This document shows positions 1,464 through 21,142 of a stretch of 21,142 nucleotides of DNA, in pieces (positions within the stretch are counted from its first letter, which is position 1; each line of letters opens with the position of its first letter). The position numbers and the translations under genes were made by a program. The notes beneath the pieces were generated by a model. It was not told the origin of the DNA, ran no database searches, and saw only the letters and a list, made by a program, of their open reading frames with translations. The stretch comes from a virus. The DNA lies in the IMG/VR virus record IMGVR_UViG_3300010413_002680, positions 1-21,142 of that record; one strand, 5' to 3'.

Positions 1464-1811
1464 ATGAAAAACGAGCAACTAAAACAAGAAATTCATGATC
1501 GCATCGAGCATATCCAAAAGTACCCGGAACAGCACCGACACGCATTTGAAGAACTAACTAAGTGCTGTATGGTAGCCGGCTTGTTTAACCTCGCGCTACT
1601 CGATGCACATAGTAGATACGCACCATGCGGGCAAAATGGCGGAAGTAAATGCGACACCGTCGACGGACCGTGCTCATGTGGTGCATGGCATGACCGAACA
1701 TGTGGCGATTGTAAAGCGTCAAATCTCAAAGGTAACGGTGTGTTGAAATGCCGCACGCACCCGAAACTGTGGATCATCGCATCCACCCCAGCGTGTAAGG
1801 ACTTCGAATAA
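1464..1811 (+). CDS. Small protein with Cys-rich tail, second of a tandem paralog pair
   Basis: This 115-residue protein has no family I recognise. Residues 5-52 repeat the domain of the preceding 60-residue protein (QEI, RIEHI, YPEQH, CMVAG, LLDAH). The remainder is a Cys/His-rich tail, with cysteines in CGQNGGSKC, CSCGAWHDRTCGDC and CRTH, enough ligands for one or two zinc sites. The start follows the previous stop by two bases, and the TAA stop overlaps the ATG of the methyltransferase at 1811 (TAATG). Its place between two methyltransferases could mean a nucleic-acid-binding accessory, but the sequence does not prove it. Confidence 0.75.
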   Translation: MKNEQLKQEIHDRIEHIQKYPEQHRHAFEELTKCCMVAGLFNLALLDAHSRYAPCGQNGGSKCDTVDGPCSCGAWHDRTCGDCKASNLKGNGVLKCRTHPKLWIIASTPACKDFE

Positions 1812-2434
1812 TGCTACAGTTCACCAACCCCGGAACCTTCGTACGCCGCGACGCGATCGACATGCTCGATGAATACAGTGCCCTTGCACAATTCGTGCTT
1901 CTTGATCCACCGTACGAAGACATCGGGTTAATTCGCAATGTGATCGTAATGGCTCTAATACGCCGAAGTCAGCTCAACATAAAAAATGCGATCGCCTGTT
2001 TCATGTGGTTGAAAGATGTCCCCGAAGTCTTCGACGGGTTGGCGTATCGCGGAGCCGAAGAGACGCGCTTACCGGCTTATCCCAACAATATCACCGTATG
2101 GGAAAAACCACAGTCAACAAAGAATACGAGCAAAGACTATTCCAACTTTCTCGAAGCGATCTGTGTGTGGCACGGTGATTACTTCAATAAAGAGCTGCAC
2201 TGGGCAAACCGCACCGGGATCTTTGTCGATCGCTTAATCGAAAAGCCTCCATTCGCACACAAGAAACCCGACACGCTCGTCGAACGACTTGTGAAGCTCC
2301 ACACCCCGCCGCGCGGATTTGTACTCGACACGTTCGCGGGAACCGGAACCACGAAGAGCGTGTGCGACCGATGCGGGTTTTATAGCATCAGTTCAGACGT
2401 TGACCCAAAAGGCGACCTAGCAAAATTAAAATGA
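1811..2434 (+). CDS. DNA methyltransferase, N4/N6 type with DPPY motif
   Basis: This is an AdoMet-dependent DNA amino-methyltransferase. The catalytic motif DPPY is at residues 32-35. The AdoMet-binding FAGTGTT follows near the C terminus at 174-180, preceded by the characteristic HKKPDTLVERLVKLHTPP segment. Catalytic motif first and AdoMet motif last is the order of the beta class, which methylates adenine N6 or cytosine N4. At 207 residues it is short for the class, so the target-recognition part between the motifs must be compact. The ATG overlaps the preceding stop. No restriction endonuclease is visible nearby, so it probably acts alone, for example to protect phage DNA or mark promoters. 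The sequence specificity cannot be read. Confidence 0.88.
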   Translation: MLQFTNPGTFVRRDAIDMLDEYSALAQFVLLDPPYEDIGLIRNVIVMALIRRSQLNIKNAIACFMWLKDVPEVFDGLAYRGAEETRLPAYPNNITVWEKPQSTKNTSKDYSNFLEAICVWHGDYFNKELHWANRTGIFVDRLIEKPPFAHKKPDTLVERLVKLHTPPRGFVLDTFAGTGTTKSVCDRCGFYSISSDVDPKGDLAKLK

Positions 2435-9241: not shown

Positions 9242-9877
9242 CTACCGCGGCGCAAACTTCAAACTATCACGTAACGCGTATAACCCCTCGTCAAATGCCG
9301 ATCGCGCGAACGAAAAAGCTATCGGGAGGGGCATCGCTGCCGTGGATAGGCGAAGCTCCCGCCCTATTTCACCCGTCACCTTGTGAAGCTTCTCGGCGAT
9401 AGGAGTGACGTCAAGTTGGTAAATCTCCGAATCGGTAATCGCGCACTTCGCCGGATCATCGAACGAGGTGCGTGCGCGGCAAAGTACCGGACGCCAATTA
9501 TAAACTAGGCACCCACCATCGTGTAAAAACACACACTCTACACCCTTTTCAAGTAGGTCAGCAACCGACATCCCTTTGTGGAGCAACGCGACCTGATCTG
9601 TAATCCGCTCCCATATCTTCGGGAGTCGCGCCGCACGAAACTTGTCTTGTGCAAACGCATGAAAAATGTAAATCGCTTCCGGTACGCTCACCGAAATCAC
9701 ACCACGACAACACGCGGTACACCCCGCCGAACACTCGCACTTTTCTTCCGCTGCCTCAATCCCGGCAGCCACTGCCGCCGAAGCCTCTTCGTGCAAATCT
9801 TTATAGCGTTTCACTACTTCGAGAATGCGCCCGACTCCCGGCTTAACGTACCTTTTTTGATCGCGTCTTCGAAACAT
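9242..9877 (-). CDS. YkgJ-like Cys-cluster protein, larger form
   Basis: This 211-residue protein carries the YkgJ-family metal-binding pattern. CECSAGCTACCRG (Cys47, 49, 53, 56, 57) precedes a helix (VPEAIYIFHAF), then comes C.FLHDGGCLVYNWRPVLCRA and a last Cys in DDPAKC. The family's RP..CR signature is intact. The N-terminal 45 residues are a charged helical region and the C-terminal 50 are a mixed tail, so the protein is larger than the minimal homolog at 3109-3483. The role is unknown in most members; metal or Fe-S binding is expected. The ATG at 9877 has GGAGAG upstream and is preferred over starts further up, which lie deeper inside the overlapping methyltransferase gene (35 bases shared). 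Confidence 0.8.
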   Translation of the reverse strand: MFRRRDQKRYVKPGVGRILEVVKRYKDLHEEASAAVAAGIEAAEEKCECSAGCTACCRGVISVSVPEAIYIFHAFAQDKFRAARLPKIWERITDQVALLHKGMSVADLLEKGVECVFLHDGGCLVYNWRPVLCRARTSFDDPAKCAITDSEIYQLDVTPIAEKLHKVTGEIGRELRLSTAAMPLPIAFSFARSAFDEGLYALRDSLKFAPR

Positions 9878-10682
9878 GCTTCTCTCTCCACTTATCAAAT
9901 TTCTCACGCGCCTCACCATGCCGCGGATCATCCGCCGCGTAGCTATACGCGTTCAAACGTAACACTGCACCAACGTAAACGTCTCGAGAAAGCTCGACAC
10001 CGACGTACCGGCGCCCCGTGAGCAATGCCGCGACGCCTACACTTGCTGCCCCGGCGAACATGTCAAAGATAACATCACCGGGATCGGTAAACTCTTCAAT
10101 CAACTCGACAAGTAGTCTTACCGGCTTTTGGGTAGGCACAAAACGATCAATGCGCTCCACACCATGCGTCCACACAGCGCGACGCCCGCCCGCGTTCCAC
10201 CGCACACTATCCTGACCACCGCGGTCATTCTTGAAGTAGTGCATGATCGCAAGTCCCTCGACCCCTTGCGCCGGACCTTTACCGTTAAACTGTGGAGCAC
10301 TATCCGGCTTCACCCACACACCACCCTTACGGTACGCGGATCCACCGAACATTTGAAACTGCGCAAGCATCTCAAGCGAGCAAAAAACAAGTGACCATCG
10401 CCGCGTCAACGTCAGCACATCGGCAAGATATGATCGTGGATCGGTCGGACTGAAATTGATTCCAAGACTCCGCCCCCGGCTACCGCGCGCACCGGCATGC
10501 GTTCGACTATCGTATCCAGGATCGGTCAGTGTGTGATCGAAAAGGCGATTGATGCGCCCGTCCACAAAACGACGACGAAGATCATGCACTAGCTCATATG
10601 CGTTTGCGTTTAGCAACACCCACGCGCTCGCGCCGTCTACTACATCGAGTACGGTTTGAAGAGTAACTTTTTTTGTCGGCAT
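9843..10682 (-). CDS. Phage-type DNA methyltransferase with altered DPPY motif
   Basis: A 279-residue beta-class DNA amino-methyltransferase. It has the layout of a phage family that I recognise from its HTLTDPPYSxRTH start, WVKxxxxPQF middle and TQKP...LI..FTDPG...FD.fAG end. The catalytic motif here reads DPGY (residues 54-57) instead of DPPY. The AdoMet motif reads FAGAASVG (209-216) instead of F.GSGTTG. TQKP (184-187) and the final RRYVGVE strand are normal. Both changed motifs are catalytic, so the enzyme may be weak, altered or inactive. The ATG at 10682 has no strong ribosome site; a GTG at 10688 is an alternative. Its last 35 bases overlap the YkgJ-like gene. Confidence 0.83.
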   Translation of the reverse strand: MPTKKVTLQTVLDVVDGASAWVLLNANAYELVHDLRRRFVDGRINRLFDHTLTDPGYDSRTHAGARGSRGRSLGINFSPTDPRSYLADVLTLTRRWSLVFCSLEMLAQFQMFGGSAYRKGGVWVKPDSAPQFNGKGPAQGVEGLAIMHYFKNDRGGQDSVRWNAGGRRAVWTHGVERIDRFVPTQKPVRLLVELIEEFTDPGDVIFDMFAGAASVGVAALLTGRRYVGVELSRDVYVGAVLRLNAYSYAADDPRHGEAREKFDKWREKHVSKTRSKKVR

Positions 10683-11350: not shown

Positions 11351-12094
11351 CTACTTGAGCCACGACCAAAAATGATTTTTGGCGCAAACCTTGCTATTCA
11401 GCAACAAACGCTGTGATAAATTGTCACACGTTGCCTGAGGTACACGATTACAGTGGATCTCTTGCCACCCACTTTCCGCCGGTCCACCCGGTCGATACGT
11501 GTCTTTATCATTACCCCATGTCGTAGGGCGCCCATCACAACGACTTCGTGTAAAACCCTTCAAAAACAACTCGGTCGAGCGTACCGCAAATTTGCAACGC
11601 TTGAAATACAACTTACGCCAGTCCCGAATCGGACCGGTCGCAAATTGCGACCACCCCGCCGGCTCCGAACAATCTAACTGCAGCGTCGAAGACCAAAGAT
11701 TCCGCGATGTCTGGCGAGCTCGATGCTTCTTTCGCTCGTCAAGGTCAAGCATCAAAAACTTGCTATTCGCAGGGAAAGTGCGTGGACTGTGCGCGATCAT
11801 CCGTTTCATAAGCTTTTTATAGTCGAGACCGAAACCAGTTCCCGGCGCTTCACCACGCAACCACCGCCGACCGCCGCCTCCGAAAAGGAGCGATTGCAAA
11901 ATACCATCATGATCCGCCACGCTCTGAAATGGTGCCTCATTAGCTACGATACGAAAGTACGCATTATGCACATCATGAAACGTAGGAATAGGCATCGTTT
12001 GCGCCGCATCGAGTGCGGTTATTTGCGAAACCGCATGATTTCGAAAACAGCAACAAGCACCTATTATCAAAACGAAAATAACAACTCTGCGCAT
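11351..12094 (-). CDS. Probable Cys-rich lipoprotein, function unknown
   Basis: The first 16 residues are a classic export signal: MRR, a hydrophobic core (VVIFVLIIGA), and Cys at a lipobox-like IGAC. The mature protein would be lipid-anchored at the cell envelope. The remainder (about 230 residues) has six or more cysteines (LDCSEP, KRCKF, SRCDGR, IHCNRV, ATCDN, KVCAK) that may form disulfides once exported. It also has a Gly/Arg-rich turn (FGGGGRRWLRG) and basic, aromatic patches. I do not recognise the fold. The ATG at 12094 has AAAAGGAG five bases upstream, which decides the start over the open frame beyond it. A lipoprotein in an early phage operon could act in superinfection exclusion, but that is only a guess. 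Confidence 0.75.
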   Translation of the reverse strand: MRRVVIFVLIIGACCCFRNHAVSQITALDAAQTMPIPTFHDVHNAYFRIVANEAPFQSVADHDGILQSLLFGGGGRRWLRGEAPGTGFGLDYKKLMKRMIAHSPRTFPANSKFLMLDLDERKKHRARQTSRNLWSSTLQLDCSEPAGWSQFATGPIRDWRKLYFKRCKFAVRSTELFLKGFTRSRCDGRPTTWGNDKDTYRPGGPAESGWQEIHCNRVPQATCDNLSQRLLLNSKVCAKNHFWSWLK

Positions 12095-12238: not shown

Positions 12239-12286
12239 TTGACAAATTTGCATTAGCAGTGAGTCTAAACAAAAGGAGCACAAAAA

Positions 12287-13096
12287 ATGGGAGACACCCT
12301 TATAATCACAGGTGACCGTAATACCCACGGAAAAAAGGATTTTACCGGCGCATTCAAACCGGAAGCCGACCGCTTCGCACGAGTTGTCCCGGGAGTGCAT
12401 CACACCGTGCGAATTGACGTATCGAAAAGTATGCCAGGTCGACGAGCCGATTTATACACGGTTTTCAAAGAATTAAACGACGACGCCATGATGTTTAATG
12501 ACGTCGCATTCTTTATGCATGGATGGTCAAAGGGCATACAATGCGGTGTCAGCCGCGAAGATGTTGGCAATCTCGCACAGCTCCTACTACCGATCACCGC
12601 CAACGGAAAAGACGCCGACCACCCTCTACACATCATCCTCTATTGCTGCCTCACCGGCGACGTTCCCGGCTCCCCGAAAGAGAATCAAACGAAAGACGGT
12701 CCCGGCGGTGACGGTGGCTTCGCCGACCGCGTTCGCGACGAGTTCTGTAAAGCCGGGCGCCCATGGGTGAAAGTCTATGCCCACACCACCGCCGGTCACA
12801 CAACCCGCAACATATGGGTGCGTAGCTTCGAGGGAAAAGGATCAACAATCGGTGCCGTAGATGCTGATTGGTTGGTGCGCCCCGCGAAATCCGGACGCCC
12901 ATCACCCCTATGGGGTGCGTGGAAAGATGCACTTTGGTCAAAGGGTAAATTCGCGAACGGCAACCTTATCGACTACCCGGGATACCTTTTCAAAACGCCA
13001 CCGTATACTCTAACCGGTAAAGCGCTTCGAAAAGACTTCCGCTTCTTCGTGCCATTTATGACAATCGAAGAGCTCCACGCGGAATTAAGCCGGTAG
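12287..13096 (+). CDS. Possible caspase-fold (DUF4347/CHAT-like) protein
   Basis: This 269-residue protein stands alone on the plus strand, with a strong ribosome site (AAAAGGAG) and a candidate promoter. I do not recognise it by close family, but the motif order suggests a caspase-like peptidase fold. A hydrophobic strand leads to His-Gly (VAFFMHGW, His78) and a following GIQCG. A second strand leads to paired Cys (HIILYCCLTGD, Cys120/Cys121), then a Gly-rich loop, a FADRVRDEF helix and a VKVYAHTTAGH strand. DUF4347 and CHAT-type proteins share this HG...C..(G) pattern and the later strand. The alternative, an alpha/beta hydrolase (HGW is also seen there), is weaker because no GxSxG elbow exists. 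The C-terminal 80 residues are unassigned. The 3' end overlaps the opposing SpeD-like gene by 12 bases. Confidence 0.55.
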   Translation: MGDTLIITGDRNTHGKKDFTGAFKPEADRFARVVPGVHHTVRIDVSKSMPGRRADLYTVFKELNDDAMMFNDVAFFMHGWSKGIQCGVSREDVGNLAQLLLPITANGKDADHPLHIILYCCLTGDVPGSPKENQTKDGPGGDGGFADRVRDEFCKAGRPWVKVYAHTTAGHTTRNIWVRSFEGKGSTIGAVDADWLVRPAKSGRPSPLWGAWKDALWSKGKFANGNLIDYPGYLFKTPPYTLTGKALRKDFRFFVPFMTIEELHAELSR

Positions 13097-13501
13097 GCTA
13101 AACGGATAGCGAAGCGAGTCCGACAGGTCATTAGCGAAAATCAAGTCAAGCGGTGCATCGAACATATTCATCACCGCTTTGACTACAATTTCAAGATCAA
13201 ACTCTCGACACGAGTAGACATCCATCACCGCATAGGAGTGTTCCGGCCAACTATGGATCGAAATATGCGACGTCGACAGAACACCCACGCAAGTCACACC
13301 ACCTTCATCCTCTTCACACTCAAGACTCGCTTTAGAGAGCTCGATCGGAATACTGTACGCGTGCACCTCACCGAGAAGCGTCATACGAATAGCTGGTATT
13401 AAATCGGCGACAAACTTACGAACGACATCGACATCGCCTAGCTTCGCACGATTCCCGCGAAAGCACACCTTCCAGTGGTTACCCTTACGTGGATCCATCA
13501 T
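13085..13501 (-). CDS. speD: SpeD-like S-adenosylmethionine decarboxylase proenzyme
   Basis: SpeD proenzymes cleave themselves to form a pyruvoyl group and decarboxylate AdoMet for spermidine synthesis; some homologs now decarboxylate ornithine or arginine. This 138-residue protein has the core motif SHISIHSWPEHSYAVMDVYSC, given here in its parts: Ser78-His79 (Ser is the pyruvoyl precursor), His83, and Cys98 (proton donor). In canonical enzymes a Glu precedes the cleaved Ser; here it is Thr77. A longer acidic loop (LECEEDEGG) replaces the usual HKFxPxGVSG stretch. Chemistry or substrate may therefore differ. A TAAGGAC site precedes two ATG codons, and 13498 is also a possible start. It is the last gene of the large minus-strand operon and overlaps the plus-strand gene by 12 bases. 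Confidence 0.88.
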   Translation of the reverse strand: MMDPRKGNHWKVCFRGNRAKLGDVDVVRKFVADLIPAIRMTLLGEVHAYSIPIELSKASLECEEDEGGVTCVGVLSTSHISIHSWPEHSYAVMDVYSCREFDLEIVVKAVMNMFDAPLDLIFANDLSDSLRYPFSLPA

Positions 13502-20031: not shown

Positions 20032-21142
20032 TTATGTCACTAGTTTATAGTCTTTGAGAGAACCCCACGCCGTACCGCGCTTTGCGTCTACTACAAGCGG
20101 CACACCGCCGCTATTCCACTTAGTCATGATCTTATGTGCGCGAATTCCCACCTCGTCAATAACATCTGAACGCGCATGAAACATCACACTGTCATGCACA
20201 GTCAAAACTAATTCCGCCGGCAACGTGGAAGATAGAAGCCACTTTATCAAAACACCGATAGATGCCAAGCAAAAATCACTCGCCGTACCTTGAACAGGAG
20301 TGTTACCGGTAATAAACACATGCCCGCTTCTCCGAGCAACAAAAAAAGTATTTGGTACTACCGGACACCACACACTAGCTTTTGCGCGAAAGCGCTTACA
20401 TTGCCTACCTAAAACCTGAACTTTATCGCGGCGAAGTAAAATAACTTGCCAATGAGACGTACCGTGCGGAGATTGCCCTTTCCATAATTTAGATGATTTA
20501 GGTGTATATTTACGCATGTCTCGCTTAATAATTGACGACGCTATGCCGCATAAAACAGCAAGCGCTTGAAACGCCTCCGCCTGTTTAGCGCTTCCAGAAA
20601 CAAATGTTCGCTTATGCCCATTGTGCCCATCCCCAAGCATCATAGTTTCTAAAAGAATTTCGGCTTGACGACGCCCCAACATAAAAACAAATTCCGTAGT
20701 CAATTCTCGTGAAGGAAATAACTCAACCAGTTTTTTGCTATATTTATCTGACCATTCCCATTGACGACACTTAGACCACTCAATATCTCGAATGGTTGGA
20801 TTAATCTGCAACCGCTCCAATAGAGCGAAAATCATACGAACTTTCTCTAAGTTAGCCCGACAACTTTGGGTTAACCCAATGCGCTGTTTTGTAGGTTTCG
20901 GGCCACGCTTACCCAAACGATCCAACACTTTCCGCGTTCTCTTCCTATACCCGTCAGTCAACCACCATCCAACCAAACGAATAAAATCGTCGCTATACAA
21001 AGAAACACCTTCACCACTAAATTCACCGGTTCGATGAATTCTATGATCGCCGTGCAAAGAGATATTTTTTGTAGTTTTCTCTATGTCATTACCCGAATTC
21101 TTATCTCGAACTAACCAACGATGATCAGGCGTTGTTATTGCA
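20032..21142 (-). CDS. Family A DNA polymerase C terminus interrupted by an intein (5' partial)
   Basis: The last 89 residues are the end of a family A (Pol I-like) polymerase. They have TPVQGTASDF, which corresponds to the APMQGTAAD segment of E. coli Pol I, then motif C as LVLTVHDSVMF. Motif C is normally VHDE; the change of Glu to Ser is noted. Directly before Thr (20299-20301) the frame reads FITGN and continues upstream as an intein for at least 280 residues to the window edge. The mature enzyme needs protein splicing. The start of the gene, polymerase motifs A and B and any exonuclease domain lie outside the window. The frame is open to the last base; an in-frame TTG at 21055-21057 is not a start. 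It is the first gene seen of the right-hand operon. Confidence 0.92.
   Translation of the reverse strand, partial: AITTPDHRWLVRDKNSGNDIEKTTKNISLHGDHRIHRTGEFSGEGVSLYSDDFIRLVGWWLTDGYRKRTRKVLDRLGKRGPKPTKQRIGLTQSCRANLEKVRMIFALLERLQINPTIRDIEWSKCRQWEWSDKYSKKLVELFPSRELTTEFVFMLGRRQAEILLETMMLGDGHNGHKRTFVSGSAKQAEAFQALAVLCGIASSIIKRDMRKYTPKSSKLWKGQSPHGTSHWQVILLRRDKVQVLGRQCKRFRAKASVWCPVVPNTFFVARRSGHVFITGNTPVQGTASDFCLASIGVLIKWLLSSTLPAELVLTVHDSVMFHARSDVIDEVGIRAHKIMTKWNSGGVPLVVDAKRGTAWGSLKDYKLVT
20302..21142 (-). mobile_element. Intein with LAGLIDADG homing endonuclease (5' partial)
   Basis: An intein sits in the polymerase gene. The visible part begins with a Block B-like TPDHRWLV, has the endonuclease motifs LVGWWLTDG (about 20950-20976) and LLETMMLGDG (about 20626-20655), and ends with a Block F-like CPVVPNTFFVARRSG and a Block G FITGN. 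The splice junction is Asn then Thr at 20301/20302, so Thr is the +1 nucleophile. The penultimate residue is Gly, where His is usual. Block A with the first Cys or Ser is off the window. By eye the intein is AT-richer than its neighbours, consistent with later arrival. Confidence 0.9.

What the first reader, a model, noticed from the sequence alone, without database searches (positions are those of the whole stretch)
12287..13096. Candidate caspase-fold protein as a lone plus-strand gene
Strand-HG (His78), then strand-CC (Cys120/121), a Gly-rich loop and a VKVYAHT strand recall DUF4347/CHAT/caspase-type folds. The gene has its own promoter-like region and is inserted between two minus-strand operons, next to a lipoprotein gene with the opposite orientation. 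A phage-encoded caspase-like protease could act in host takeover, anti-defence or prophage-linked abortive infection. No known family was confirmed.
Basis: inference. Interest (0 to 1): 0.72.

Follow-up and report, generated by a model that had tools for sequence, protein, structure and literature searches.

The report
Phage caspase-like protease, new family
A phage gene encodes a protein predicted with high confidence to have the caspase protease fold, with its two likely catalytic residues kept in all 51 relatives that could be checked; the relatives lie in about 50 uncultivated phage contigs, often next to the genes that burst the host, and no family library used here describes them.

Summary
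An alignment-based AlphaFold2 model (pLDDT 94, pTM 0.92) is a caspase-type sandwich. Best solved match: the DUF4347-type T6SS effector Tce1 (Z 12.0), then SAVED-CHAT, C80 protease domains, legumain and caspases (Z about 8-9). About 50 uncultivated viral contigs carry relatives. His78, Gly79 and Cys121 are kept in 51 of 51 aligned sequences, including relatives found with DNA patterns that did not include these sites; Cys120 is usually Ala, so the dyad is His78/Cys121. No Pfam, PHROGs, NCBIfam or PADLOC family claims the protein, and tblastn with six members found no convincing relative in 50,697 phage records.

The gene behaves as a mobile accessory gene: 82% identical between the window's phage and a 140-kb relative whose shared neighbours are 32-65% identical, and differently placed and oriented. 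Across phages it lies near small membrane, secreted or holin genes (16% versus 4.6% of genes; p = 1.5e-8), often beside transglycosylases. Eleven records, including the closest relative's, encode a separate head-maturation protease.

Best reading: a caspase-fold cysteine peptidase acting in the host cytoplasm late in infection, around lysis. Fold and dyad are well supported; activity, substrate and timing are inferred.

The parts
12287..13096 (+). caspase-fold putative cysteine peptidase, 269 aa
   Evidence: ORF, structure model m15186cc773fa pLDDT 94.1, pTM 0.92, fold matches, family alignment A2
12518..12523 (+). codons of His78-Gly79, predicted catalytic His at the end of the third strand
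   Evidence: position from the translation; 51 of 51 conserved; strand 72-76 precedes
12647..12649 (+). codon of Cys121, predicted catalytic Cys after the fourth strand
   Evidence: 51 of 51 conserved; neighbouring Cys120 is Ala in 28, Cys in 22 and Gly in 1; strand 114-119 precedes
12698..12739 (+). Gly-rich loop and following helix GPGGDGGFADRVRD, near-invariant in the family
   Evidence: A2; D147, R150 and D151 near-invariant
12767..12814 (+). strand and loop VKVYAHTTAGHTTRNI; His166 invariant, His171 and Asn175 near-invariant (probable substrate-pocket loop, inferred)
12271..12286 (+). Shine-Dalgarno-like AAAGGAG and spacer before the ATG
   Evidence: read directly from the sequence
11354..12094 (-). 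divergent neighbour: secreted/lipoprotein-like protein of a lysozyme-like family that also lies beside the gene in other phages (context, not part of the protein)
   Evidence: profile of the neighbour family matches it, E 6e-5 in the neighbour gene set; no Pfam or PHROGs hit; its own structure prediction failed

Best explanation
The gene encodes a single-domain cysteine peptidase of the caspase fold (clan CD type) with a His78/Cys121 dyad. It has no signal peptide or membrane segment, so it acts in the host cytoplasm. It is a mobile accessory gene: it moves between phages independently of the backbone and is most often kept in or beside the tail-fibre/lysis/terminase region. The most likely job is limited proteolysis late in infection, cutting one or a few host or lysis-control proteins so that the cell is prepared for, or timed into, lysis. 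Supported by computation: fold, dyad conservation, transfer and context enrichment. Inferred: that it is an active protease (about 0.8), that it acts at the lysis stage (about 0.4). The substrate is unknown.
For: Model pLDDT 94.1 with the caspase strand order, His after strand 3 and Cys after strand 4. Foldseek PDB rank 1 is CED-3, with many caspases below, though none reached E 0.001. VIA Z 12.0 to Tce1 over 160 residues at 3.0 A, well above the next rows at 8-9 (SAVED-CHAT, C80, legumain, caspase-6). In Tce1 the proposed dyad is His186/Cys240, aligned by its authors with the TcdB dyad (PMC13323088). 51 of 51 keep His78, Gly79 and Cys121. Strong constraint, dN/dS about 0.09, and 82% identity where shared neighbours have 32-65%. 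Small membrane or secreted genes within 3 genes: 41/254 versus 35/766 far away, p 1.5e-8; locus permutation 3 of 1999. Eight of nine records with an SLT transglycosylase have it within 3.5 kb of the gene, five within 400 bp. Lysozyme-type neighbours are scattered over the family tree, about 8 changes. Holin hits phrog_608 near two members.
Against: No activity or substrate is known, and no residue-level structural superposition could be made here. The SLT-adjacent records are partly related phages, so not all independent; 13 of 43 loci show no membrane or lysozyme gene within 3 genes. In the window, L001 and L171 the gene lies among DNA-metabolism genes (SbcCD, RecA, dCTP deaminase-like), not in an obvious lysis cassette, although the window copy does abut a secreted lysozyme-like gene. 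Accessory genes of any function often settle at module boundaries, so position alone does not show a lysis role.
Confidence: 0.5

Rival explanations
1. Anti-defence or host-takeover protease: the same caspase-fold peptidase cleaves a host immune or regulatory protein during infection, and its late-region position only reflects where accessory genes settle.
For: Mobile accessory behaviour, different insertion places and orientations, a position among early/replication genes in the window, L001 and L171, strong constraint on one dyad across diverse phages.
Against: Enrichment near membrane and lysis genes is not expected for a purely early function; no partner or defence model recognised.
Confidence: 0.25
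2. Self-contained toxin or effector related to Tce1, used in superinfection exclusion, prophage-linked cell death or against predators of the host.
For: Closest solved fold is Tce1, a putative cysteine-protease effector of the Hcp3 tube (PMC13323088); integrase genes in 7-9 of 46 records show that some carriers are temperate.
Against: Most records have no integrase (many are fragments); no adjacent immunity candidate is shared across the family; Tce1 itself did not markedly affect E. coli growth.
Confidence: 0.15
3. Morphogenesis protease that matures the phage head or tail.
For: Adjacent to terminase genes in L126/L136/L137/L139/L152 and at the end of baseplate/tail-fibre runs in others.
Against: A separate head-maturation protease (Peptidase_S78_2) is encoded in 11 of 46 records, including the closest relative G001 and all five terminase-adjacent ones (G007, G017, G018, G021, G034); phylogenetically patchy and mobile, unlike head genes.
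Confidence: 0.06
4. Catalytically dead regulator that keeps the fold only.
For: No activity data exist.
Against: 51 of 51 keep His and Cys of the dyad plus invariant Asp18 and His166.
Confidence: 0.04

Closest known systems
DUF4347 domain proteins (PF14252), with the T6SS effector Tce1/PA0256
   Same: Best structural match (Z 12.0, 160 residues, 3.0 A) and the Pfam family hit by most members (10 of 35); His and Cys in the same order
   Different: Best score stays below Pfam's cut-off and the window protein itself has no hit; phage-encoded, no Hcp/T6SS context, no roughly 100-residue N-terminal extension; 16% identity in the structural alignment
CHAT proteases (PF12770; SAVED-CHAT, TPR-CHAT of Craspase)
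   Same: Same fold (Z 8.9) and HG ... strand-C pattern; one member scores E 8e-4
   Different: Below cut-off; free-standing domain without TPR, SAVED or CRISPR partners
Caspases, paracaspases and metacaspases (C14)
   Same: Fold (Foldseek rank 1 CED-3; Z about 8), dyad order, HG motif
   Different: No QACxG motif (Y-[A/C]-C here); single small domain with its own C-terminal tail; no significant sequence match to the PDB
C80 cysteine protease domains, C11 clostripain, C13 legumain
   Same: Clan CD fold, Z about 8-9 for C80 and legumain; a BFVD C11 protease hit at E 9e-4
   Different: No domain fusion here; no significant sequence relation seen

Membership tests
Caspase-fold (clan CD type) cysteine peptidases | alpha/beta sandwich with catalytic His after strand 3 and Cys after strand 4 | tested here: met
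   Model secondary structure and fold matches; positions of His78 and Cys121 relative to the strands
Caspase-fold (clan CD type) cysteine peptidases | conserved His/Cys dyad across the family | tested here: met
   51 of 51 aligned sequences, including relatives found with patterns lacking these sites
Caspase-fold (clan CD type) cysteine peptidases | proteolytic activity dependent on the Cys | not testable with these tools
   needs biochemistry
DUF4347 (PF14252) | score above Pfam's gathering cut-off (24.6 bits) | tested here: not met
   window protein: no hit; L096, which has the best E-value of the 10 matching members: 20.2 bits
CHAT (PF12770) | score above Pfam's gathering cut-off (24 bits) | tested here: not met
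   the only matching member, L096, has 19.3 bits
C14 caspases | QACxG-type motif around the catalytic Cys | tested here: not met
   window reads Y-C-C-L-T-G; family Y/F-[A/C]-C; the motif definition is from general knowledge
T6SS effector Tce1 | association with Hcp/T6SS genes | tested here: not met
   no T6SS or Hcp gene recognised among the neighbours read; phage genes around the copies
Head-maturation proteases (S78 types) | match to Peptidase_S78 / S78_2 | tested here: not met
   a different locus matches S78_2 in 11 records; the one sub-threshold S78 match (G004) is also elsewhere

The most novel reading that the evidence does not exclude
Phages carry their own transferable caspase-like executioner: a widespread, undescribed family of caspase-fold proteases used as a timed component of host-cell killing and lysis, alongside holin, transglycosylase and spanin.
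Probability: 0.3. Interest if true: 0.82.

Novelty: new variant of a known kind. Interest (0 to 1): 0.62.

Why it matters
Caspase-fold proteases in prokaryotes are known mostly from host defence and cell-death systems and from secreted effectors. A conserved, mobile family carried by phages, often near lysis genes, would mean that phages also use this protease class against their hosts. The family is invisible to the libraries searched (Pfam, PHROGs, NCBIfam and PADLOC give no confident hit), so it would be overlooked in routine annotation, yet it is small, single-domain and easy to express and test.

Tried and rejected
Genome-contig scans with the window protein and the two-sequence alignment found no bacterial relative, but these used narrow peptide patterns, so absence from bacterial genomes is not shown. 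Plasmid and INPHARED phage tblastn with several members: no convincing match. Sequence profile against the PDB: only chance hits. The structure prediction of the divergent neighbour 11354-12094 failed (pLDDT 41) and was not used. The sigma-70 promoter claim was not supported. The HGWxxGxQxG motif was itself a search pattern, so W80, G83, Q85 and G87 conservation is partly circular; independent patterns show W80 and Q85 do vary while HG and Cys121 do not. A head-maturation role was considered and largely rejected. Phage_TAC_6 similarity of two members (best E 0.016; C-terminal tail in L020) was not pursued. Literature searches on phage-encoded caspases or caspases in lysis returned nothing; the library lacks most subscription journals.

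Full report
What was checked. The finding is the ORF at 12287-13096 (+) in a 21,142-base virus record. The gene stands alone on the plus strand between minus-strand genes; its stop overlaps the convergent AdoMet decarboxylase ORF by 12 nt. A Shine-Dalgarno sequence is present; a sigma-70 promoter was not found.

Family. No Pfam, NCBIfam or PADLOC family matched the window protein, and PHROGs gave only a chance-level hit (E 0.14). One IMG/VR contig (L001, 140.7 kb) carries an 82% identical copy. A scan with a back-translated HGWxxGxQxG motif, a scan with GDGGFADxxRD, one with AHxxAGHxxxNP and a profile-derived scan brought in relatives in about 50 contigs, most 30-40% identical, confirmed by tblastn or profile. 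Each of 46 records searched whole holds one copy (one of them, G008, as two pieces in different frames). tblastn with six members against 50,697 annotated phage records found nothing convincing.

Fold and dyad. With 35 sequences AlphaFold2 gave pLDDT 94.1 and pTM 0.92. Strand order is that of caspases, with His78 just after strand 72-76 and Cys121 just after strand 114-119. Foldseek's top solved structure is CED-3 (E 1.1e-3), followed by many caspases mixed with other Rossmann-like folds; none reached 0.001. The finer aligner puts the T6SS effector Tce1 well ahead (Z 12.0, 160 residues, 3.0 A), then SAVED-CHAT, C80 cysteine protease domains, legumain and caspase-6 at Z 8.3-8.9. Rows near Z 8 alone could be a common arrangement, but every row shown is a caspase-fold (clan CD) entry. 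Tce1 is PA0256, described earlier as a DUF4347 protein (PMC8262886) and later as a putative cysteine protease with His186/Cys240 (PMC13323088). Ten of 35 family members hit DUF4347 (best E 5.5e-4) and one hits CHAT (8.2e-4); for L096, the best of them, both stretches span its HG and Cys and both scores are below the curated cut-offs. In 51 of 51 aligned sequences His78, Gly79, Cys121, Asp18 and His166 are unchanged; Asp147, Arg150, Asp151, His171 and Asn175 are nearly so; Cys120 is Ala in 28. Relatives first met through patterns without the HG and Cys sites also keep them, so the dyad conservation is not a product of the search.

Mobility. Compared gene by gene with L120 (the region of G001), 12 other shared genes are 32-65% identical with mostly saturated synonymous sites, whereas this gene is 82% identical with pS 0.63 and dN/dS 0.09. 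In the window it is inverted relative to sbcC and separated from it by the AdoMet decarboxylase and small genes; in L120 it directly abuts sbcC on the same strand. Exchange more recent than the split of the two phages is the simplest reading; stronger constraint may add to it. In the tree the window pair groups with L152 and the terminase-adjacent copies L126/L137/L139, while L136, which has the same terminase neighbours, lies elsewhere, again suggesting exchange. In L146 and L135 transposase-like genes lie next to the gene by eye.

Context. Neighbours were called in stretches of up to 20 kb from 45 records. Small membrane or secreted proteins are enriched within three genes (41 of 254 versus 35 of 766 far genes; p 1.5e-8; 3 of 1999 random placements reach the observed number of loci). 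SLT transglycosylases occur in nine records, eight of them within 3.5 kb of the gene, five within 400 bp; several of these phages are related. A second secreted lysozyme-like family includes the window's own divergent neighbour 11354-12094 (E 6e-5); its biochemical identity is unproven. Two neighbours match a holin family. Upstream there are often baseplate and tail-fibre-like genes (by eye and by clustering); in L167 the order reads tail protein, caspase-like protein, then small membrane proteins. Lysozyme-type neighbours need about eight changes on the tree, so the association recurs. It is not universal: 13 of 43 loci lack it, and the window, L001 and L171 copies sit near DNA- and nucleotide-metabolism genes.

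What it probably does. None of the called members has a membrane-like segment, so the peptidase should work in the cytoplasm. A separate head-maturation protease is encoded in 11 records, including the closest relative, which argues against a capsid role. A late, lysis-linked proteolytic role is the best-supported inference; an anti-defence or host-takeover protease that travels as an accessory gene is the main rival. Nothing here shows activity or substrate.

Novelty. The fold and dyad are known; the family, its phage distribution, its mobility and its lysis-linked position were not found in any library or paper searched. Hence a new variant of a known kind.

Noticed in passing
window 13085-13501 (-): S-adenosylmethionine decarboxylase (AdoMet_dc, 69 bits) in a phage, convergent with and overlapping the caspase-like gene; L120 carries one at 53% identity.
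   Followed up: partly
window 20032-21057 (-): Intein-like insertion with a weak LAGLIDADG match ahead of the C-terminal part of a family A DNA polymerase.
   Followed up: partly
window 1811-2434 (+) and 9846-10682 (-): Two N6_N4 DNA methylases on opposite strands; a further gene at 448-1272 reads like an MT-A70-type methyltransferase (by eye).
   Followed up: no
L146 2277-4045 and L135 7114-9495: Genes that read as IS607-type TnpA/TnpB (L146) and IS66 transposase genes (L135) lie immediately beside the caspase-like gene, which may help to explain its mobility (by eye).
   Followed up: no
G008 (L127), about 30518-31199: The caspase-like gene is split between two frames, so it may be frameshifted or misassembled there.
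   Followed up: no
L121, L127, L128, L144, L149, L150: A family of short secreted SLT-like transglycosylases lies beside the gene, several too diverged for Pfam.
   Followed up: partly
window 13034-13093, C-terminal tail of the protein family: Conserved R-[FY]-x-x-P-F-[ML]-x-x-x-E motif; two members weakly hit the phage tail assembly chaperone family TAC_6.
   Followed up: no
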